Below, one piece after another: positions 1-16,708 of a DNA stretch of 24,121 nucleotides. The stretch is from positions 1 to 24,121 of IMG/VR virus record IMGVR_UViG_3300042905_001606, one strand, 5' to 3'. Within the stretch, counting starts at the first letter, position 1. Each line of letters opens with the position of its first letter. The notes below the pieces were generated by a model that saw only the letters and a program-made list of their open reading frames with translations, did not search any database and had not been told where the DNA came from. Source of the stretch: a virus. Both the position numbers and the translations under genes were made by a program.

Positions 1-733
1 TCGCCAGTATGATACCCACAACATCTGCGTCAGAGTCGTATCCCGAGGCGGTACCAGTGAAAGTGGCAGCGTTGGTCTTGAACTGCACAATATCGCCAGG
101 AGCAAAGTTGGAAGACACTGCACCAGCCCCGCTAAGAGACACCACAGATCCGTAAATAGGAACCGATCCGCCACGCTCCAGTAGACGCGAGTACAACTCC
201 GAGTAGTCTGCCACCGAATACGAAGCACCGTTGCACTCCAACCAACTCTCAGGAACAACTGAACCTGCATACGGAACAATACTGCCCACAGGTTGAACTT
301 CATCTATTGAAACAGTGGAAGACCCACCAATCTGTGTGCCCAAGTAGTTTGTTACTATGTACCCACCACTGAGATGGTTACGAGAAACCACTGCTTTTAC
401 AACGGAGCCTATGAAACTAGGAGGACTGTTTGTGAGTTCTCCCGCAGTTTCTCCAGACAAAAACATGACAGGAAAGGAAACTCCTGCCAAAGCAGGAACG
501 CTCAAGTATCCACTGTAAGTGATTTCAAAGTTGTCCGCGTCCGTAATAGAGTTGACTACGCCCACTACTTCGGCATTGGTGGCGTTGTCAGCCTTTGCCT
601 TGACGTACTTTCCGTTTGATGTATTTAAACGGAGCACGTCACCGACCACGAATCCGTGCCCAACCTGGGTCAACAACTCCTTTAGAGTTTTTGTGTTTGC
701 TGCTCCACCGCTTAGAACTAGTGTTGACCCCAT
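1..733 (-). CDS. Tail fibre protein with phage tail-collar domain, partial (C-terminus beyond left edge)
   Basis: The frame opens with ATG at 733 and stays open to base 1, giving 244 visible residues; the stop lies outside the window. An AAAGGAA Shine-Dalgarno sits about 7 nt before the ATG. Residues 24-118 form a module also found in the S74 fibre gene, including NAEVVGVVNSIT and FEITYSGYLS. Residues 150-192 match the start of the phage tail-collar fold (GSIVPYAGSVVPESWLECNG, then YSELYSRL), known from T4 gp12 and many short fibres that bind host surface glycans. Instead of continuing to the usual FNLPDLRGR segment, the chain runs into a second copy of the module (APGDIVQFKTNAA, DADVVGIIL) at residues 208-244. 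It follows the previous gene by 24 nt. I infer a peripheral host-contact fibre. Frame and domain are clear; the complete architecture is not visible. Confidence 0.88.
   Translation of the reverse strand, partial: MGSTLVLSGGAANTKTLKELLTQVGHGFVVGDVLRLNTSNGKYVKAKADNATNAEVVGVVNSITDADNFEITYSGYLSVPALAGVSFPVMFLSGETAGELTNSPPSFIGSVVKAVVSRNHLSGGYIVTNYLGTQIGGSSTVSIDEVQPVGSIVPYAGSVVPESWLECNGASYSVADYSELYSRLLERGGSVPIYGSVVSLSGAGAVSSNFAPGDIVQFKTNAATFTGTASGYDSDADVVGIILA
380..664 (-). repeat. Fibre module, copy C (within collar-domain fibre, residues ~24-118)
   Basis: GDVLRLNTSNGKYVKAKADN, NAEVVGVVNSIT, FEITYSGYLS, MFLSGETAGELT and SVVKAVVSRN follow the same order as copies A and B of the S74 fibre. A fourth, incomplete copy begins near base 112 and runs off the window (APGDIVQFKTNAA, DADVVGIIL). 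Confidence 0.7.
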
Positions 734-757
734 GTGTGTTTCCTTTTACTGTATGTA

Positions 758-1771
758 TCAGTTCAAATCCAATGTGTACTGGTCGCCCACGAAGTAGATT
801 TTGTGTATGGTTTGGGCACTAAAGGTACTGTTTGTAATAGTAAATACCTGCGGCGAACCCGTCCAGTTTACAAACAACGAGAATCCACTTCCACCGTACC
901 AATTTCCTGAAGTTGCCATACACGCGCCCAACTGCTGATTACTTCCGTATAGTAACCTAGTATTATTGGAGTCCAGTGATGCGTTGTCTGATCCTGTCCT
1001 CCAATGCACCAAACACGCTTCCCAAGGCTGAAAGGTTGCATTAATTGTAGTACCAGACGAGTATCCCAAATTCGATGTTATCTCCCATTTGTTGGGAAAC
1101 AAAAACCACCCACACGCACCGTTGCCGTTACACCCACCTCCACTAAAAGAGGCAGAAATATTTGCCATATTCTTGAACTTGAGAGTGTTTGAAGTTCTAA
1201 AAGCGCGAACCTGACCACCTGCCACTGAATGTGTAGTGGAGGTGGATGCACCTAAAGCAGTGCTAGAGCCTCCTAGGTTGTTCAGTGTTGTTCCATTTGT
1301 ACCGTCTTCAACTACACCAATAGTGATCAGTGTGTTTTCTACACAATGCTCTGATTTTCTAGCCAAAGTGTTGTTGGAAACAAAGGTAGAAATGGTTTGT
1401 GTGTTGTTAAGAGTTGCGTACAATCCGCAGCCCCCATCGGCGGAGGTTCTAACAAAAGGAGAGAGCGCATCACTCCAAGCGTATCCATACCTAGGAGGAC
1501 TGTATCCCACTAATCCATTAGACAAAGCAGCATATGCACTGTACGGATTGTAAGGACAGCCCGCTAAAAACGCCAACATGGACTCTCGTCTTCCTGTGTG
1601 CCTGCCTTTTCCAACAAAGTCTCCGTACTTTAGTGGAGCAGCGGTTGGAATGCTAATGTCACGAGAAAGATATCCCAAAAGGTTGTCAGCAGTAACACCC
1701 GCGTTTGGTCCAAACTCTACTTGGATGTTGCTAACTAGTCCGAGTGGTACACCAGAAGGTATTGTTCCCAT
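758..1771 (-). CDS. Putative tail fibre / adhesin-like structural protein
   Basis: 337 residues, ATG start with a full AGGAGG Shine-Dalgarno 6 nt upstream; the start lies one base after the stop of the S74 fibre gene. The N-terminus (MGTIPSGVPLGLVSNIQVEFG) followed by LKYGDFVGKG at 47-56 resembles short structural modules common in marine T4-like fibre and collar proteins, where a 'GVPisl...E.G' segment precedes a 'dFyGK' segment. The rest is rich in Gly, Ser, Thr, Asn and aromatics, typical of beta-structured fibre tips. Seven cysteines are present (72, 115, 143, 214, 220, 253, 284), including a CNGNGACGW cluster at 214-222. I recognise no enzymatic motif. Its place between two fibre genes supports a host-contact or fibre-accessory role, but the exact function is unknown. 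Confidence 0.82.
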   Translation of the reverse strand: MGTIPSGVPLGLVSNIQVEFGPNAGVTADNLLGYLSRDISIPTAAPLKYGDFVGKGRHTGRRESMLAFLAGCPYNPYSAYAALSNGLVGYSPPRYGYAWSDALSPFVRTSADGGCGLYATLNNTQTISTFVSNNTLARKSEHCVENTLITIGVVEDGTNGTTLNNLGGSSTALGASTSTTHSVAGGQVRAFRTSNTLKFKNMANISASFSGGGCNGNGACGWFLFPNKWEITSNLGYSSGTTINATFQPWEACLVHWRTGSDNASLDSNNTRLLYGSNQQLGACMATSGNWYGGSGFSLFVNWTGSPQVFTITNSTFSAQTIHKIYFVGDQYTLDLN

Positions 1772-1772
1772 T

Positions 1773-4700
1773 TTATTCCTCCTGTGGCGGTGGAATTTGG
1801 TTTACCCGAGACGACAGTTCATCAATTTTCTGCTTTAGTTGCTTTATGGCTTCAACAAACAAGCCTGCAAGATTTCCGTAAGCCAAACTGTAGTACCCTT
1901 CGCCCTCGGTGCCCCCGTGAACGGCTTCAGGCAAAACAGCCATAACGTCTTGCGCAATAAGTCCTGTTCTACGGTTTCCCTCGCTGTTTGTGTACAGAAC
2001 TCCGTTTAGTTTAAGAACCTTACTCAACGCGTCTTCCAGCGCAGTAATGTTGGTTTTCAAACGACTGTCGGACAAAGCAGTAATATCACCACTTGCGAGT
2101 ATTTGCCCAATTACGTGGAGTGCTTGGGTGGGTGTTTCTGTACCGATTCCGGTTTTTCCGTCGTTCAAGATGGTTAGTTGAGCCACAGGTGAAGTTCCCG
2201 CATCAGCCGCTTTGCCTAACCGTAAAACACCGTCTTTTTGCGACAAGAACCCCACTCGGGATCCTGATGCGGCATCAGAATCAGAAAGCACCAATGCTGC
2301 TCCAGTGGTGGACGCAACAGTTACTGATCTGCCGTACCCTGAAATGAGCAGAGGAGAACTAACACCGAATCCAACACTACCCGAGAAGTACGCAGTTGGT
2401 CCACTCATGCGGAAGTGTTCCGTAAGGGTAGACGTTCCGTTTATTGGCGTATCGGTAGAAGATTGGCTCAAGAAAGAGATTATTCCTTCGCCTTGAGTAG
2501 CGCAAACACCAACAACAAAACTGCTCTTTGGAATAGTACCCGAAATCGTGGAGGTGTACAGAGAAGACTTTGTTGCTCCCTGTACACCGTAATTGATTTG
2601 TAGGTTTGCAGTTCCGTATTGCGTTCCGATCACATTGTATGATCCAGCACACGTTCCATTGGCTACATCACTGGTTGACGTGAATCGACTAATGATGAGA
2701 GGTCTGCCGTCAGGAGTAGCAGCAGTGTTATCCCCGATTCTGATGTGACCTATGACATCAAGTGGAGCAATTATCCTGTTTCCTGCTCCGCCGTTAGCCC
2801 AGTTGCTCCAACCACTACCTACTCCAACGTATCCTGCTATACCTCTACTGTTATTAAAGAACGCGCTTCCAGCAGCAATTCTCATGGACTCGGTGCCTTG
2901 AATTGCTCCGTTATAACGAGAAATCACCAAGTCACCACTAACACCGTCTCTAAGATCGGTTACAAGTATTCTTCCAACATCAACAGAAGCACCCTGAACC
3001 GTAACTACACCACCAAGTACGCCTCTGTCTGCGTACAGGTATCCGGCTCGTGCGCCTGTTGCCAAAAACACTGCCTTTGAAACTTGTTGAGAAACAGACG
3101 GAGGATTGATTTGGAAAGACGAAACACTGCTTTCCAGTGAAGTAGAGTGATGTACTGGATACGAAGCGGGAATAGTTCCTGCGCAATTTGTAGCCAGCCA
3201 GTAAACAGTTTCAGGTGTAAGTGGTGTGCTGTACGTGTACGTGATGCCGTCAAAGAAACCGTCAACCAAAACATCAAAATTTTGGTACACCAAGTTGTTT
3301 ACGTTGTTGCCCGTTGCACCACCAACAGCAACAACCATACCAGCAACTTCTGCCTCGGCAGCGGTATTTGCCTGTGCTTTAACGAAAATACCAGTTGGGT
3401 GATACTGTTCTGCTGTGTTTCCATTGTTTGCAGCGTTTGTAAAATACCGTAAGGTCACCCCCGCAGGATGCGCTTTGAATCGAACAAAGTCTCCAAGGTT
3501 GAATCGGTTCAACTGGTTGAATCGGGTAGTAATAGAAGACGCATTTGAAATTTGCACAGGCGTAGCAAGTTCGCCACCAGTAAAGGGCAAAACCATTGCA
3601 GACTTAACACCAGTTGCAATCATCAGTGCCTTCTGCACCTGACCGCCAGCAAGAGGCTGAACACTGGTTATTTTTCCTGGATTGTACGGACTCAAATAGT
3701 AAACTGATCCCTCTACTAGTTGTCCACCTGAGTCTTCCAAAACATTGGCAAAATTACCAAATATCTCTCCAACAAAAGTCATTTCAAATTCTGTTGCCGA
3801 TATGATGTCTGATACGATACCAATCACTTCTGCGTTTGATGAGTTGTCTGCTTCAGCAGCAATATACTTGTTTGCGCTACCTGCATCGTAACGAACAGGT
3901 GTTCCAAATTGGAACAAGTGTGATCCCGCCGTCTTTACTGTTTTTCTATTGACACCGTTTTCTATCTTGACAAAGGGTCGTTGACCGTATGTGGTTCCAT
4001 TAAGAACTTCCATGAAAGCAGTAGAACCTGCAAGACTGTAACGAGAAAACTCGATTACGCGATCAGATTCAGGAGAACCTGCAAGAGTTCGCACCTCAAA
4101 ACCGTGTTCTGTTGTTGCGCCACCGTCCACGCGAATACCGCTTCCGTGCACTGGCAACAAACCGTTTCCGCTTGGAACTATTCCGTGCGTTGATCCACTA
4201 AATCCTATGTGGGCGTTTGATCTCCACAGCCCTGTAAATCCGTGAATCTGATTTGCAAGCCAAACCCATTCCGCGGTTCCACCTGTTCCTCTGTACAGCA
4301 AAACACCACCACCACCAGCAGTATTAATTGCTGTGTCGTTTGCAGCAGAACTAGCACCCAAAACAATACTGTAGTCATCAATAGTGACTGTGTTTGCGTT
4401 TACAGTAAAAGTATTGGCATTGAATGTAACATCACCATCAAAGGTAACACCGTTTGTAAAGCGAATTGACCCCTGGAAGGTATGACCGTATTGAATATTG
4501 TCAGACAGTCTGTATGTAAATGTTCCACTTGGAGAGTCTATTACGGTCAGTTCGTCTCCACTAACACCTTTATACGACTGAAGTTTATTCAGTTTATACA
4601 CAGAGAGATTGGTAATATCTCTCCAAGTATTGAAAGTATCCCCTAGTTCAACTTCAGGAATTTGGTAGGTGTTTGAGTCTGGTCCGGTGTTAATTGCCAT
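1773..4700 (-). CDS. Long tail fibre protein with C-terminal self-cleaving Peptidase_S74 chaperone domain
   Basis: 975 residues, ATG start 2 nt after the stop of the coiled-coil gene. The N-terminal part (VELGDTFNTWRDITN, residues 17-31) resembles the baseplate-attachment ends of marine phage fibres. Residues 70-115 are repetitive beta structure (GVTFDGDVTFNANTFTVNAN). Residues about 261-360 and 397-550 are two copies of a fibre module containing AEVIGIV and AEVAGMV. GIGTETPTQALHVIGQILAS (851-870) leads into the S74 intramolecular chaperone: SDSRLKTNI at 877-885, then RTGLIAQDVMAVLPEAV. In characterised members (endosialidase and T5 fibre chaperones) this domain trimerises the fibre and then cleaves itself off; the Ser/Lys pair spaced by five fits S877 and K882. 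The tail end (AIKQLKQKIDELSSRV) is a short coiled coil. The receptor-binding part is presumably residues 560-850. Confidence 0.93.
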   Translation of the reverse strand: MAINTGPDSNTYQIPEVELGDTFNTWRDITNLSVYKLNKLQSYKGVSGDELTVIDSPSGTFTYRLSDNIQYGHTFQGSIRFTNGVTFDGDVTFNANTFTVNANTVTIDDYSIVLGASSAANDTAINTAGGGGVLLYRGTGGTAEWVWLANQIHGFTGLWRSNAHIGFSGSTHGIVPSGNGLLPVHGSGIRVDGGATTEHGFEVRTLAGSPESDRVIEFSRYSLAGSTAFMEVLNGTTYGQRPFVKIENGVNRKTVKTAGSHLFQFGTPVRYDAGSANKYIAAEADNSSNAEVIGIVSDIISATEFEMTFVGEIFGNFANVLEDSGGQLVEGSVYYLSPYNPGKITSVQPLAGGQVQKALMIATGVKSAMVLPFTGGELATPVQISNASSITTRFNQLNRFNLGDFVRFKAHPAGVTLRYFTNAANNGNTAEQYHPTGIFVKAQANTAAEAEVAGMVVAVGGATGNNVNNLVYQNFDVLVDGFFDGITYTYSTPLTPETVYWLATNCAGTIPASYPVHHSTSLESSVSSFQINPPSVSQQVSKAVFLATGARAGYLYADRGVLGGVVTVQGASVDVGRILVTDLRDGVSGDLVISRYNGAIQGTESMRIAAGSAFFNNSRGIAGYVGVGSGWSNWANGGAGNRIIAPLDVIGHIRIGDNTAATPDGRPLIISRFTSTSDVANGTCAGSYNVIGTQYGTANLQINYGVQGATKSSLYTSTISGTIPKSSFVVGVCATQGEGIISFLSQSSTDTPINGTSTLTEHFRMSGPTAYFSGSVGFGVSSPLLISGYGRSVTVASTTGAALVLSDSDAASGSRVGFLSQKDGVLRLGKAADAGTSPVAQLTILNDGKTGIGTETPTQALHVIGQILASGDITALSDSRLKTNITALEDALSKVLKLNGVLYTNSEGNRRTGLIAQDVMAVLPEAVHGGTEGEGYYSLAYGNLAGLFVEAIKQLKQKIDELSSRVNQIPPPQEE
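1776..2084 (-). other. Peptidase_S74 intramolecular chaperone domain region
   Basis: Encodes residues 873-975 of the fibre. SDSRLK supplies a putative catalytic serine (877) and lysine (882) with the spacing known for endosialidase chaperones, so release of about 98 C-terminal residues is predicted. A coiled-coil tail follows at about 951-966. Cleavage itself is inferred from the family. Confidence 0.88.
1778..1783 (-). promoter_or_regulatory. Consensus ribosome binding site for the 337-residue fibre gene
   Basis: A perfect AGGAGG stands 6 nt before ATG at 1771 and overlaps the last codons of the S74 fibre. It is the strongest Shine-Dalgarno in the window and suggests high translation of this protein relative to its neighbours. 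Confidence 0.75.
3051..3512 (-). repeat. Fibre module, copy B (within S74 fibre, residues ~397-550)
   Basis: Protein-level repeat: LGDFVRFKA, then a longer insert, then EAEVAGMVVAV, FDVLVDGFFDG, YWLA and KAVFLATGA. The order of elements matches copy A and the copy in the gene at 1-733. It is divergent at the DNA level. Boundaries are approximate. Confidence 0.65.
3621..3920 (-). repeat. Fibre module, copy A (within S74 fibre, residues ~261-360)
   Basis: Order of elements: FGTPVRYDAGSANKYIAAEA, then NAEVIGIVSDI, FEMTFVGEI, YYLSPYNPGKIT and VQKALMIATG. The same elements in the same order occur in copy B and in the gene at 1-733. The pattern looks like a beta-rich domain reused along fibres. 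Boundaries are approximate. Confidence 0.7.
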
Positions 4701-12298: not shown

Positions 12299-15200
12299 TT
12301 ACAGTCCTACGTTCGTGTATGTATCGTTGGACAATACAGTTCCATCCGACAGAACCGTACCCGATGATTTGTATATTGAATCTGGAAGAGCAAAGAATCT
12401 GATTAGCGGTGTACCAGAAAATTCAGAACCAAAAGGTATGGTTGATATGTTCTTATTGTTCGGGTGGTTTTCTATGTCCCAATACGTAACCCCCTGAGCG
12501 AATGCGCTTGGATGACTTAGTCTAAACGCATCAGGCATTTTAGTCTCCAAAAGAGTGGCGTACTTACGAGTCAAGTACGCATACACACCCTGTCGCTCGG
12601 TTTCACTTAGTTTTCTATCGTAGACTATCACCTCGTAAATAACACCCTCGAAACCATAAGATCCATTGGTAAGAGCACTGTTTACCCATGCTTGAGAACC
12701 AAAACCCAAACTGGAGTCAGCCGAAAGTGTTGTTCTTAATAGAGATCCAAATCTACCAATACTCATGGTTACACCCGAAACAGGAAACGGAGACTCTGAT
12801 GCGTTTCCAACAGCATTTGCCACGTACCGTCCGGTTGAACGGGAGAAATTGGTTGCCCTGTCTCCGTTTACCCACGCGTAAATCGTGCCGTCTGTGTCTC
12901 GTGCAGCCTCGGCAATTACCACTCCACTACAAACTCCTGAAACGTGCGGGTCGTAGGCTATGGTCTTGCACTCCGCGTCACGGTTACCCAAAAATCCTCC
13001 ACGTGGGCGGAAAGCAAATAGTCCTGCTGCGCTAGCCAAGCCAGCCGCGCTTGGATACCTAAACACTCCGCCTTGTACAGAATAGTATACAGAAGTCTGA
13101 TACGATGGCGTGCGGTCTATGTTGTTCCATGATCTCGCGTACGCAACCCCATCACTAAACGCAAGACTGAGTCCTTCTTGCCGAGTAAATCGGTAAGAAC
13201 TACAGATCATAACACCTCGGTCATATGCGTCGCTTGATGTTTGGTACACAACAAACATATCCATGTCTTTGTTGGTGTTTGTGACTATTGGTTTGGTGAG
13301 GTTGAAATGCCTGCCGGTCAATAGTTTTTCTCCGGTGAATCCAGAATAAAATGTTATGCCCTTTACACCAAGAGTTTTACCGTCAGATCCTGAACCGACC
13401 CATGTGCTTTCGGCACTGTACAACACACCACCATTGAACGATATGCCAGTGGCTCCTGTTATGCCCAAATGCTTGAACGCAATTTTGGGGCGTAAAGAAT
13501 CAATCGTGACACCAGCGTAAACACTAGTAGTCACACCTGCACTAACCGTACCAAACACAGGCGTTACTCGTTTGCCGTTGTACGACAATTCTTTGATTGT
13601 TACGCTGGTTCCTGCGTTTGCAGTGTCGGCAGAGTTCAAATAGAAAGACGAGTCAAAGTAATAGGTCTTTCCGTATCCAACATACCCTCGTCTTGCCTCG
13701 CGCCCGTCCACGCGGAAAATGATATTCGGTTCCACGTACTCCAATTCAAACACCGTGTTGTCAAACGCTGTCAAAACAGAGGTACCTGTAACCAATGGTG
13801 GACTACTGTCAATCATGTTGTTGTTGTTTCCAGGAATTTTAAATCCCCCCAAAATTGTTCTGTTTGGAGTAACACCACCATACGGACCATACGAGTACAG
13901 GTAGTTGTCTATTCCAGTTTCACTCACCGCAGTAGGATTTTCAGACAAGCCCACGATACACAGTCTTCCCGTTTTAAATCCTCCACACGCACCGTTAAAC
14001 ACAACTGCCACTTTGGTTACTGGTGTGGTGTTGTCGGAAACGTGTCGTCCCCAAGAAGTAGCCGTGTTAGCAGTGTGGTTTATTTGCGCAACGTCATTCC
14101 AAAAATCCCATGTTGGTGGTATTGCGTCGTTTTTGTTTGGAGATGCGTCTCTCCACACATCCATGCACGCGCCGGAAACAAAAGCACCACACACACCAAT
14201 GTTCTCCGGCTTCAGCCACAGCACCAGTCCAGAAAACTGGTCAGGTGCAGAACGCTGCTCATTGCCTCGCGTCCAAGCAGTCAGCCCTCCTAGTGGTGCG
14301 CCAATAGGATTATGTGCAGTCAATCCAAACTCGTCCATCACGGTGTACGTGTATCCCATTCCCGAATTAAAGAACAGAGAACCAACAGACGCAGAATTGC
14401 CGTTTGGTCCGATTTCTGTGCTTACACCAATATACGGGTTGTATCCATTTGGATAAAAGTCTCCAACCGCTCCACACCAACCACCCGCAGGCAGAGACGC
14501 ACCGGGAGGAGTGGTTTTGTACGGGTGACCTTGTGGCAAGTTGCCGTCTAGGTTGTACTTGTGAGCAAGGTAGCCTTCAATCTTCTGCCGATCACTGGTT
14601 CCCACATCGCCCTGATAGCAAAGGATTTCTGCGATTTCTCCATCGAATGCTCCAACCAAAGAATCAGCCCTCTGCTGCCCTATTTGCAGAGGTTCTGGAG
14701 CAATTGCTGCCCCTGTTGGCTGCGCTTGTGCCACAGTTCCGAGACAAACCCCGTCAACAAACAGGGACATGGGACCAGAAACACCTGTGTTGCAAGTGAA
14801 TGTATGAGAGACGAGTTTCCACTCACCCGTTTTGCCAATACTTCCAATGATTCCATTAGTATTGGCAGATGCGTGCCAACTGAACGCTGCAATCTTTGGA
14901 ACTGTCAGGTCTGATCCTGTGACTCCAAAAAATATTCCACGATGTGCACCACGGTCACCAAGCAACATATTACCTGTGGTGCTGAAGCCGAACGCGTTCA
15001 TTTGTGTCAGGCGACCAGGCTTGACCACTGCAAAATATGAAGTGGAAAGAGTAAGACCCAGTGCACCCATTGTTGGACCACTGAATCCCAAACTAACCAT
15101 GTTGCCCGTGTAATCAGGACCACTAAAATTGTACTGTACCGGACGAATACGAACAGTGGGATGGGTGTTCAGTGACTCCTGTTGAAAATTGGGAGTAAGC

Positions 15201-16708
15201 CAAACATTGGAGTTTGGATACGAACCGAAATGAGAGAAAGTGTGTCCACCAACAATACTCCTCCAGTGCCGCACACCAAATATGTCTTCACGGTCAGCAC
15301 TTCTCCCACCTGGATCCGATCCAATAGTAGCCACATTCAAAAGCGTTCCCCATCCTGCGGTGATTCCACTGCTGGTGTTGCCTGCAATGTTGTACCCACT
15401 CAACCACACCTGAAGAGTCGCGCCCTTTACTTGGTTGGGCAAGAAGTACCCGCCGCGCAGGTCATTGAATGTGCGAAGTGCATAGGGAGTGTATCGACCT
15501 ATCACTGGAGTTTCAAAAGTGATTTGTTGAGCAGATGAAACTATATTGTTGTCAATGCTCTTTTTTATCAATAAAGAAGCAAACATCCGAGTACCAGCAG
15601 GGTGAACCAGACGTCTCAGCACATCATAGCAAATACTGAAACAAACCTCACTTTTCAATTCATAAGAAAAGTCTTGGTAGTAGTGTCCGTCCTGAATTCG
15701 CTTGTTGCTTGAAATTTTGCCGCTGTTTCCTAGGAAATATCCAGGATACTCAGTCACTGCACTACGAAGTGCTTTGACTATTGCAGTCTGAACACCTGTT
15801 TCAGAAACAATGCTCACAACAACATCCGTGGCGTAGTTTATACCTGAATTGATGATGCCTATGCGTTTGATGCCTCCGGCAAGACCAACCTGTTCTACCT
15901 TTGCTGCAAATCCACTCCCCGTGGTCGTGGAAACTGTCACGATGTCTCCAACCCTATACCCCGAACCAGAAAGTTCAATATTAAACCCACCCAGTACACT
16001 GTAAGTCTTTTCGGTGTACTCTTCAGTGTCTTTCCTAAAGACTATGTTTTCGTTGGGTAAGAAATCTCCGTTTATGTTGCTCAAGAAAAATTCAGTAACA
16101 GGAAATCCACCAAAGGAATACTGAACAACTGAATCCACTGTAGCAGATGCGATAAGACCGCCCGATCCATTGTATTGGAGTGCTTCTCCGTTCTTCATTG
16201 AGAACAAGTTGGATGTGTTCGTACTTGTTGTTTTTACAGACCGAGGCTCAATCCATCTACCGTCTGAAACTTTTAGTATGTCGTTCTTTGGAAGGTAGAT
16301 TTCCAAATCACTGTCGTACAAAACTCGGAACAAAAACTTGAAAGAGTTTTCTGTTCCCTTGTTGCCATAGAAATCTCGTATTTTCTTGAGCAGTGTTTTT
16401 TTGTTTGGTTTGTTTCCTAACGTGTCCGTAGCGAAAAGTTCAGGAAATGTTGATATATATGTGCTCTTGAAGTGAGAATAGAACTCGTCCACGTTACGGT
16501 CAACATCAGAAACCGTGTCCAACTTTCCCATCACGTATCCAGGGTTTCCCTGTGTGTCCAACCATTCGTAGTAAGCCTTGACAAAAGAAACAATCTTGCG
16601 GTAGTCGCTTCGCATGAATTTAGGGAACTGCTCCTCAATAAAAGGAGCAATCACGTCTTCTAATTCTTCATCACTCGTATTGAGTATAATTTGCTTAATT
16701 TCCGACAT
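12299..16708 (-). CDS. 7: Baseplate wedge protein gp7-like with three LamG/ConA-like modules
   Basis: 1469 residues; the ATG lies inside the end of gene 6 (14-nt overlap), with GAGAGGAA upstream. The first ~385 residues correspond to the C-terminal core of T4 gp7: SFVKAYYEWL (41-50), IRDFYGNKGTENSFKFLFRV (110-129) and DVLRRLVHPAGTRMFASLLI (362-381), which parallel gp7's FYSTKG...YKFLFKVLY and FVHP elements. T4 gp7's large N-terminal part is absent. The rest resembles three LamG/concanavalin-like lectin units. Unit 1 (~430-722) ends in EGYLAHKYNLDGNLPQGHPY, a known tail of bacterial LamG proteins. Unit 2 (~825-1045) opens with GLVLWLKPENIG...WRDASPNKNDA. Unit 3 (~1060-1390) ends in VIVYDRKLSETERQGVYAYL. 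I infer a wedge anchor plus glycan-binding decoration. Confidence 0.87.
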   Translation of the reverse strand: MSEIKQIILNTSDEELEDVIAPFIEEQFPKFMRSDYRKIVSFVKAYYEWLDTQGNPGYVMGKLDTVSDVDRNVDEFYSHFKSTYISTFPELFATDTLGNKPNKKTLLKKIRDFYGNKGTENSFKFLFRVLYDSDLEIYLPKNDILKVSDGRWIEPRSVKTTSTNTSNLFSMKNGEALQYNGSGGLIASATVDSVVQYSFGGFPVTEFFLSNINGDFLPNENIVFRKDTEEYTEKTYSVLGGFNIELSGSGYRVGDIVTVSTTTGSGFAAKVEQVGLAGGIKRIGIINSGINYATDVVVSIVSETGVQTAIVKALRSAVTEYPGYFLGNSGKISSNKRIQDGHYYQDFSYELKSEVCFSICYDVLRRLVHPAGTRMFASLLIKKSIDNNIVSSAQQITFETPVIGRYTPYALRTFNDLRGGYFLPNQVKGATLQVWLSGYNIAGNTSSGITAGWGTLLNVATIGSDPGGRSADREDIFGVRHWRSIVGGHTFSHFGSYPNSNVWLTPNFQQESLNTHPTVRIRPVQYNFSGPDYTGNMVSLGFSGPTMGALGLTLSTSYFAVVKPGRLTQMNAFGFSTTGNMLLGDRGAHRGIFFGVTGSDLTVPKIAAFSWHASANTNGIIGSIGKTGEWKLVSHTFTCNTGVSGPMSLFVDGVCLGTVAQAQPTGAAIAPEPLQIGQQRADSLVGAFDGEIAEILCYQGDVGTSDRQKIEGYLAHKYNLDGNLPQGHPYKTTPPGASLPAGGWCGAVGDFYPNGYNPYIGVSTEIGPNGNSASVGSLFFNSGMGYTYTVMDEFGLTAHNPIGAPLGGLTAWTRGNEQRSAPDQFSGLVLWLKPENIGVCGAFVSGACMDVWRDASPNKNDAIPPTWDFWNDVAQINHTANTATSWGRHVSDNTTPVTKVAVVFNGACGGFKTGRLCIVGLSENPTAVSETGIDNYLYSYGPYGGVTPNRTILGGFKIPGNNNNMIDSSPPLVTGTSVLTAFDNTVFELEYVEPNIIFRVDGREARRGYVGYGKTYYFDSSFYLNSADTANAGTSVTIKELSYNGKRVTPVFGTVSAGVTTSVYAGVTIDSLRPKIAFKHLGITGATGISFNGGVLYSAESTWVGSGSDGKTLGVKGITFYSGFTGEKLLTGRHFNLTKPIVTNTNKDMDMFVVYQTSSDAYDRGVMICSSYRFTRQEGLSLAFSDGVAYARSWNNIDRTPSYQTSVYYSVQGGVFRYPSAAGLASAAGLFAFRPRGGFLGNRDAECKTIAYDPHVSGVCSGVVIAEAARDTDGTIYAWVNGDRATNFSRSTGRYVANAVGNASESPFPVSGVTMSIGRFGSLLRTTLSADSSLGFGSQAWVNSALTNGSYGFEGVIYEVIVYDRKLSETERQGVYAYLTRKYATLLETKMPDAFRLSHPSAFAQGVTYWDIENHPNNKNISTIPFGSEFSGTPLIRFFALPDSIYKSSGTVLSDGTVLSNDTYTNVGL
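12539..13531 (-). other. LamG/concanavalin-like module 3 of the gp7-like protein
   Basis: Residues ~1060-1390. It opens with a strand (RPKIAFKHLGITGATGISFN), has MDMFVVYQTSS and IYAWVNGDRAT in the middle, and ends with GVIYEVIVYDRKLSETERQG and VYAYLTRKYATLL. This is the usual end of bacterial LamG-like units, a last strand followed by a helix. Boundaries are approximate. Confidence 0.65.
13574..14236 (-). other. LamG/concanavalin-like module 2 of the gp7-like protein
   Basis: Residues ~825-1045, from FSGLVLWLKPENIG and DVWRDASPNKNDAIPP to ELEYVEPNIIFRVDGREARR and IKELSYNGKRV. The opening 'LVLWL...W.D.S...NDA' is typical of LamG-like lectin units. It lacks the closing 'EGYLAHK' helix seen in module 1. 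Boundaries are approximate. Confidence 0.6.
14543..15421 (-). other. LamG/concanavalin-like module 1 of the gp7-like protein
   Basis: Residues ~430-722: ATLQVWLSGYNIAG at the start, YFAVVKPG and WKLVSHTFTCNTG in the core, MSLFVDGV, then DGEIAEILCYQGDVGTSDRQ and KIEGYLAHKYNL. This is the best of the three matches to the LamG/ConA-like family. Boundaries are approximate. Confidence 0.75.

What the first reader, a model, noticed from the sequence alone, without database searches (positions are those of the whole stretch)
380..3920. A fibre module reused in at least two adjacent fibre genes
The ordered set 'G..V.......Y..A.A', 'AEVVGIV', 'FE.T..G', 'YFLS...G.LT', 'KAV..A' occurs twice in the S74 fibre and once, with a second partial copy, in the collar-domain gene. 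Shared modules can allow recombination between fibre genes and quick changes in length or receptor range.
Basis: seen in the sequence. Interest (0 to 1): 0.5.

Follow-up and report, generated by a model that had tools for sequence, protein, structure and literature searches.

The report
Repeated bead domain in phage fibres
Two neighbouring tail-fibre genes of an uncultured phage carry three old copies of an unnamed bead-like protein domain, related to the beads of a known phage neck fibre and predicted to resemble capsid cement proteins, so phages seem to reuse one building block in several fibres.

Summary
The repeat is real. Two copies (F1, F2) lie in the S74 fibre and one (C1) in the collar-domain gene; F1-C1 and F1-F2 beat all 1000 shuffles, F2-C1 998. 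The "second partial copy" is not a full copy: it lies at 8-115, outside the stated range, matches about 36 profile columns, and belongs to an insert that splits the Collar domain.

A profile grown from the copies finds 144 copies in 112 ORFs of 80 loci. No curated family names the domain. It matches the A-1(L) neck-fibre bead protein gp81 (37.7 bits; best of 900 shuffles 7.3), published as trimeric beads. In models of F1 and of a C1 orthologue, the best structural matches are small phage capsid (decoration-type) chains (Z 9.6 and 8.5). Likely role, inferred: a trimeric bead that spaces and registers the fibre chains.

The recombination idea is only partly supported. The 2+1 layout is kept in nearly all relatives seen, copies group by position, not by phage, and copies within a phage are no more alike than between phages. 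What occurs on either gene is the S74 tip.

The parts
1773..4700 (-). S74 tail fibre gene (P0001, 975 aa) carrying module copies F1 and F2
   Evidence: Peptidase_S74 E 1.2e-13; long tail fibre families
3966..4700 (-). N-terminal 245 aa of the fibre, conserved in relatives (52-63% identity in most); probably the baseplate-attachment end (inferred)
   Evidence: weak BppU_N match below cut-off
3591..3926 (-). module copy F1
   Evidence: 103 bits; predicted fold; Z 9.6 to a chain of the Adjutor capsid entry
3033..3518 (-). module copy F2, longer than the others by insertions of about 24, 10 and 19 aa
   Evidence: 80 bits
1917..2072 (-). Peptidase_S74 (intramolecular chaperone) domain at the fibre's distal end; on the collar gene in some relatives
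758..1771 (-). 337-aa gene (P0003) between the two fibre genes, no module and no known family; not seen in the relatives
2..733 (-). collar-domain fibre gene (P0002), cut by the window end after 244 aa
   Evidence: Collar E 7.7e-10
356..670 (-). module copy C1
   Evidence: 118 bits; fold of the L004 orthologue
185..286 (-). first part of the Phage Tail Collar domain (Pfam positions 1-34 of 57)
8..115 (-). C2: weak resemblance to the first third of the module, inside an insert that splits the Collar domain; not a full module copy

Best explanation
F1, F2 and C1 are three copies of one globular beta domain of about 105 aa, followed in many single-copy relatives by an N-(W/Y/F/M)-R-G end. Each copy sits in a fibre chain that is expected to be a trimer. 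Three copies from three chains most likely pack into a trimeric bead that locks the chains together, sets their register and spaces the stalk, like beads on a string. The distal domains (S74 tip, collar part) would do the maturation and receptor work. The copies arose by old duplications and have stayed in fixed places since.

Shown here: homology of the three copies, conserved positions, sequence homology to A-1(L) gp81, a position close after collagen-like stalks in a quarter of the single copies, and a predicted fold closest to small phage capsid chains of the decoration type. Taken from a paper: gp81 and gp82C form trimeric beads in a chain. Inferred: trimer formation and the spacer/register role in this phage.
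For: Homology of copies. Position-specific clades: (SH-aLRT 96, 98, 98); joint descent. Profile match to gp81 at 37.7 bits, Flavobacterium phage 11b gp32 51.3, Xanthomonas phage X1 C-terminus 41.3, gp82C 15.2; best of 900 shuffles 7.3. PMC10966104 (passages, section 8 read): about 14 gp81 trimers in a chain on trimeric gp82; trimer models (AlphaFold2) fitted to a 6 A map. In L083 a gp82C-like ORF (E 3e-20), a gp81-like ORF (51%) and a module ORF (109 bits) are consecutive. Of 49 distinct single copies, 12 have at least 8 Gly-X-Y triplets within 80 aa upstream and 3 within 80 aa downstream; 17 of 53 module ORFs in loci without a two-copy fibre contain such repeats, against 19 of 394 other ORFs of 200 aa or more. 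VIA-align: F1 against Adjutor Z 9.6, Patience 8.2, BB1 8.2, HFTV1 8.1, Pam3 7.5, XM1 7.3, phi29 gp12 C-terminal part 7.1, TW1 6.2, then herpesvirus capsid (triplex-type) chains 5.9 and less; L004 C1 against Adjutor 8.5, Pam3 7.2, gp12 7.2, BB1 6.7, XM1 6.5. PMC7602432 (passages): beta-tulip decoration proteins and triplexes share a fold, decoration ones form trimers, gpD resembles phi29 appendage 3SUC. One copy (in L075) is hit by both the module profile (40.6 bits) and Pfam Phage_cement_2 (20.4 bits, cut-off 24) at the same place.
Against: No Foldseek match in the PDB reaches E 0.001; models are single chains of moderate confidence (mean pLDDT 74.5 and 63.8). The tool warns that Z under 8 may mean only a common arrangement; only four F1 rows and one C1 row in the tables reach 8. 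For several entries the table names the phage, not the chain; that these are decoration chains rests on chain length, Pfam names seen (Pam3, XM1) and recall. The alpha-helix that the review gives as part of the beta-tulip fold is not visible in the F1 model and only three residues long in the C1 model. No oligomer was modelled. F2 was hardly covered by the fold comparison (5vku_g Z 5.9, 7et3_g 5.6, 1td0_C 3.1). The gp82C match is weak. Most single copies (37 of 49) have no collagen stalk within 80 aa upstream. The one protein over the Phage_cement_2 cut-off in the 35 records searched (L088) is not matched by the module profile. gp81 is a separate polymerising subunit, whereas here the domain is inside longer fibres.
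Confidence: 0.7

Rival explanations
1. The module is a carbohydrate- or surface-binding domain: repeated copies raise avidity for the host surface, and the fibre's job is done by the module itself.
For: Seven of 100 copies touch Pfam CBM_5_12 weakly (best E 0.0012) and one the endosialidase beta-barrel (E 0.0019). The review says some decoration proteins may take part in cell attachment (PMC7602432 passages). Orthologous copies are only about half identical between phages.
Against: These Pfam matches are few and weak for 100 members against a large library. F1 and F2 lie mid-chain, and C1 is followed by the Collar domain. In A-1(L) the carbohydrate-binding part is assigned to gp80, not to the gp81 beads, and it showed no binding to the host (PMC10966104).
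Confidence: 0.15
2. The module is a recombination cassette: shared sequence lets the two fibre genes exchange parts and change length.
For: Same module in adjacent genes; the S74 tip occurs on either gene in relatives; one fibre-like gene (L053) has one copy instead of two.
Against: Copies keep position-specific clades, show no within-phage homogenisation, share no long DNA repeat, and the two-copy fibre is constant while length varies elsewhere. Congruent distances of F1, F2 and C across 19 loci (Mantel rho 0.70, 0.35, 0.47) point to joint descent.
Confidence: 0.1
3. The similarity is convergence on a common small beta-barrel sequence pattern and the copies are not related by descent.
For: The first third of the module (GDxV ... 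AEVVGIV) resembles other small barrels; residues 16-78 of the F1 model align with V-ATPase and MreC chains at Z about 3, and C2 shares the pattern.
Against: The similarity runs over the whole 105 aa, with hhalign E below 1e-20 for all three pairs and blastp E 3.5e-11 for C1-F1.
Confidence: 0.03

Closest known systems
Neck-fibre bead proteins gp81 and gp82C of Anabaena phage A-1(L), with YongM2 proteins annotated 'head decoration protein D' and Flavobacterium phage 11b gp32
   Same: Detectable sequence homology over the module; in L083 the window-type module lies right after gp82C- and gp81-like genes.
   Different: gp81 is a small separate protein that polymerises into a chain on the neck; here the domain is built into long multi-domain tail fibres, two copies in one and one in the other.
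Capsid decoration/cement proteins (Adjutor, Patience, BB1, HFTV1, Pam3, XM1, TW1; beta-tulip type such as lambda gpD)
   Same: Predicted fold of F1 and of a C1 orthologue is closest to these. Weak family hits: PF09956 for 3 of 100 copies (best E 0.00028), PF23982 for 3, PF22758 for 1, PHROG head decoration for 1 and for C1 at E 0.046-0.073. One L075 copy is hit by PF09956 and the module profile at the same place.
   Different: Sequence identity is 8-16% in the structural alignments; the window copies match none of these Pfam families; the site is a tail fibre, not a capsid.
phi29 gp12 preneck appendage C-terminal fragment (3gqh, 3suc)
   Same: Fold match Z 7.1-7.2; the review reports similarity of gpD to 3SUC.
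   Different: In phi29 it is a self-cleaving C-terminal domain (recalled, not looked up); here the module is internal and repeated, and an S74 domain is present separately.
Trimerising caps of phage collagen-like fibres (PfC of EPclA, PMC3368898 passages)
   Same: Globular domain next to a collagen stalk that forms trimers.
   Different: No sequence relation was tested; the comparison is of role and place only.

Membership tests
A-1(L) gp81/gp82C bead family | sequence homology over the bead domain | tested here: met
   37.7 bits (gp81), 15.2 (gp82C), 900 shuffles at most 7.3; blastp gp81 against the L083 module ORF E 0.001
A-1(L) gp81/gp82C bead family | trimeric globular bead | not testable with these tools
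   single-chain prediction only
A-1(L) gp81/gp82C bead family | separate small subunit in a gp82-gp81-gp80 operon that polymerises head to tail | tested here: not met
   the window copies are domains of long fibre genes; filed as homologues of the bead domain, not as neck-fibre subunits
capsid decoration/cement proteins | overall fold of the decoration proteins | tested here: inconclusive
   best Z 9.6 (F1) and 8.5 (L004 C1), such chains leading both lists; no Foldseek E <= 0.001 in the PDB
capsid decoration/cement proteins | five-stranded barrel with a helix between strands 3 and 4 (beta-tulip, as described in PMC7602432) | tested here: inconclusive
   strands but no helix in F1; three helical residues in C1; moderate confidence
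capsid decoration/cement proteins | match of the window copies to a curated cement family (PF09956, PF22758) | tested here: not met
   none; among 100 copies 3 and 1 match weakly; one L075 copy 20.4 bits, under the cut-off of 24
capsid decoration/cement proteins | binds the capsid | not testable with these tools
   gene context is tail fibre
Peptidase_S74 tail fibre | Pfam PF13884 over cut-off near the C-terminus | tested here: met
   51.6 bits, cut-off 22
Phage tail collar fibre | Pfam PF07484 over cut-off | tested here: met
   39 bits, cut-off 24, positions 1-34 of 57; the rest lies beyond an insert and beyond the window end

The most novel reading that the evidence does not exclude
One trimeric bead domain has spread by descent to three sites of tailed phages: cement on the head, beads of the neck fibre, and beads of long and short tail fibres. 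The module of this window would be the sequence-level link between tail fibres and neck-fibre beads, and fold plus a few intermediate copies (such as L075's) would link both to capsid cement.
Probability: 0.4. Interest if true: 0.55.

Novelty: new variant of a known kind. Interest (0 to 1): 0.36.

Why it matters
The domain is common in uncultured phages (144 copies in 80 loci; 64 BFVD matches at E <= 0.001, most of the 50 rows seen being unnamed proteins) yet has no Pfam or PHROG name of its own, and whole window proteins match no NCBIfam model for it. A profile for it would let annotators recognise fibre shafts in unnamed proteins. If it trimerises alone it is a ready-made trimer cap, and its link to neck-fibre beads and cement-like folds gives a testable route by which phages recycle one part in head, neck and tail.

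Tried and rejected
Rejected: C2 as a full fourth copy. Rejected: module-driven gene conversion. Led nowhere: tblastn of P0002 (E 1e-5) and of C1 (E 1) against 50,697 phage records gave no match, nor did L037's copy at E 0.001; F1 gave one doubtful match at E 0.1; L035's copy gave 10 records at E <= 10, best 0.003, useful only after the profile test. L010's collar protein hit 6 records through its collar part only. Sequence searches of solved structures with profiles gave nothing credible. gp81 has no solved chain in the PDB copy (best E 0.63, an unrelated protein); the solved chain 8keg_a is gp82, modelled only for residues 1-125, outside the module. P0003 has no match in viral contigs.

PF09956 was sought in the records of 35 loci that I picked out of 78: 3 have a match at E <= 0.001, one over the cut-off. 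That one (L088) is not matched by the module profile (2.6 and 4.0 bits), the weakest (L090) not either, but the third (L089) falls on the divergent L075 copy.

Limits. In one search the comparison was dominated by F1; F2's fold was barely tested. C1's fold was modelled on L004's protein, not on the window's. Two long-fibre PHROGs reach back into F2 in the whole protein (from residues 481 and 426), but isolated F2 matches none. Of the 1083 phage records matched by P0001 I saw 40, all through residues 828-972. The 10 single-copy ORFs scanned were chosen by me; six had a Collagen match, one below its cut-off. For the tree, 100 of 144 copies were used (80% identity cut), by the quick method, with 44 of 97 inner branches open; L059's C and F2 copies lie outside their groups and the long-branch L075 copy lies inside the F1 group. 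L044, L056 and L066 (two copies, another architecture) were left out of the 29 loci. L003 and L081 are one contig, so these 29 loci are 28 records; several others are near-identical, and 19 distinct ones were used for the distances.

Full report
Observation. The window is a 24,121-base virus record with contractile-tail baseplate and fibre genes on the minus strand. The S74 fibre (1773-4700) and the collar-domain gene (2-733, cut by the window end) are separated by a 337-aa gene (758-1771). Three full copies of a domain of about 105 aa are present: F1 (3591-3926), F2 (3033-3518) and C1 (356-670). Pairwise scores exceed 1000, 1000 and 998 of 1000 shuffles for F1-C1, F1-F2 and F2-C1. Groups of orthologues of the three copies align to each other with hhalign probabilities above 99%.

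The partial copy. In 17 relatives with the region in view, the Collar domain starts (..WLECNG.SY..), is interrupted, and in most resumes with ..(N)TPDLRGRF or similar; from the interruption to that point there are 94 to 155 aa. The window's 55-aa fragment is the first part of that insert. It resembles profile positions 3-38 (11.8 bits; 16.2 bits in isolation against at most 9.1 in 897 shuffles; insert family against single copies 80% probability over 45 columns; C1-C2 reached by 1 of 1000 shuffles), but the 17 other inserts score 8.3 bits or less. In the model of the L004 protein the insert region (residues 195-292) matches F1-ATPase chains and a Pa193 baseplate/tail-fibre chain at Z about 5, while the module region of the same model matches decoration-type chains at Z 8.5 to 5.8. 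It is best called a different small barrel with a shared local pattern; a very distant relation of the first third is not excluded.

Relatives. A scan of viral contigs with the three-copy alignment gave 78 loci. An iterated profile found 144 copies in 112 ORFs of 80 loci (79 fetched and the window), 32 ORFs with two copies and 80 with one. Twenty-nine loci share the window's fibre architecture with two copies; 26 of them, the window included, have the collar gene in view with one copy. Judged independently by the fibre's N-terminus, 28 of 28 matching ORFs are two-copy fibres. The loci were fetched by the module, so relatives without it would be missed. L053 has one detected copy in the gene before its collar gene, and L062's is cut. 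In 25 relatives the collar gene begins within 98 bases of the fibre's end or overlaps it; the 337-aa gene was found in none of the loci.

Descent of the copies. In a tree of 100 copies, 15 of 16 C copies form one group (SH-aLRT 98), 15 of 16 F2 copies another (98), and all 15 F1 copies with one long-branch stray a third (96). Across 19 distinct loci, orthologues share 51%, 48% and 53% identity (F1, F2, C), whereas paralogues share 31-35% within a phage and 33-36% between phages. Distances of F1, F2 and C are correlated (Mantel rho 0.70, 0.35, 0.47; 0, 5 and 0 of 2000 permutations as high). These results fit duplication before the radiation of the group, followed by separate descent, and give no sign of exchange between copies. 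No long DNA repeat joins them.

What does differ in place. The S74 end occurs on the fibre in the window and L003/L081, and at the C-terminus of the collar gene in L013/L041 and L028/L052, 55-59% identical to the window's. The fibre ORFs range from 644 to 1397 aa with the same two modules. Rearrangement of the two genes is thus seen at the tip, not at the module.

What the module is. No Pfam or PHROG family covers the isolated copies, and the whole proteins match no NCBIfam model there; scanning 100 copies gives only scattered weak matches, among them three cement or minor capsid families and CBM_5_12. A weak tblastn result led to annotated phage proteins that the profile then confirmed: 11b gp32 51.3 bits, Xanthomonas phage X1 41.3, A-1(L) gp81 37.7, YongM2 33.4, A-1(L) gp82 residues 139-222 15.2, against at most 7.3 in 900 shuffles. 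In contig L083 three consecutive ORFs are a gp82C-like protein, a gp81-like protein (51% to A-1(L) gp81) and a protein with the window-type module (109 bits). The A-1(L) paper reports that gp81 and gp82C form trimeric globular beads, about 14 gp81 trimers in a head-to-tail chain (PMC10966104, passages and section 8). A sequence bridge to cement proteins is thin: one divergent copy in L075 is hit at the same place by the module profile (40.6 bits) and by Pfam Phage_cement_2 (20.4 bits, cut-off 24), while a protein over that cut-off (L088) is not matched by the module profile.

Fold. The model of F1+F2 (mean pLDDT 74.5) and the model of the L004 collar protein (63.8) were compared with solved structures. 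In both lists the module region is led by chains of phage capsid entries that I take to be decoration-type proteins (Adjutor first in both; the tables often name only the phage) and by the phi29 gp12 C-terminal part; herpesvirus capsid chains follow for F1. Foldseek E-values alone are not significant in the PDB; against predicted viral proteins 64 matches reach E 0.001, and the 50 rows seen include a collagen-repeat protein, tail-fibre proteins and auto-processing-chaperone proteins. A review describes beta-tulip decoration proteins as trimers, gives herpesvirus triplexes the same fold, and reports similarity between gpD and the phi29 appendage (PMC7602432 passages). The helix said to belong to that fold is not seen in the F1 model, so I do not file the module as a beta-tulip protein.

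Role. Among 49 distinct single copies in other proteins, 12 lie within 80 aa after collagen-like repeats and 3 within 80 aa before them; none of the F1, F2 or C copies do. A domain beside a collagen stalk is well placed to hold three chains together. My explanation is that the module is a trimeric bead that registers and spaces fibre chains; trimer formation and role in this phage are inferred.

Novelty. The kind is known (bead/cement-like trimer domains; neck-fibre beads). The family as a repeated internal part of S74 and collar tail fibres, without a name in the libraries searched, is a new variant. I searched papers and saw no description of this module in tail fibres in the listings and passages; most subscription journals are not held and most listed papers were not opened.

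Noticed in passing
window 758-1771 (-): A 337-aa gene between the two fibre genes has no Pfam, NCBIfam or PHROG match, no match in viral contigs and no counterpart in the loci held, where the collar gene follows the fibre directly; perhaps a recent insertion.
   Followed up: partly
window 1917-2072; L013, L028, L041, L052 collar genes: The S74 chaperone tip is on the fibre in this phage but on the neighbouring collar gene in other phages, 55-59% identical.
   Followed up: partly
L083:2825-4810: On a contig binned as an Ignavibacteria genome, three consecutive ORFs encode a gp82C-like protein, a gp81-like protein and a window-type module protein: a possible neck-fibre operon of an unknown phage or prophage.
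   Followed up: partly
window 2-145 and the relatives: The Collar domain of this group is split by an insert of variable sequence and length (94-155 aa to the point where the domain resumes), predicted to be a separate small beta-barrel.
   Followed up: partly
L075:2595-2909: A divergent module copy that is also hit by Pfam Phage_cement_2 below its cut-off, a possible intermediate between fibre beads and cement proteins.
   Followed up: partly
window 12299-16708 (-): A 1469-aa protein with a baseplate-wedge N-terminus whose remaining length matches other virion proteins only in short patches, suggesting domains added to a wedge subunit.
   Followed up: no
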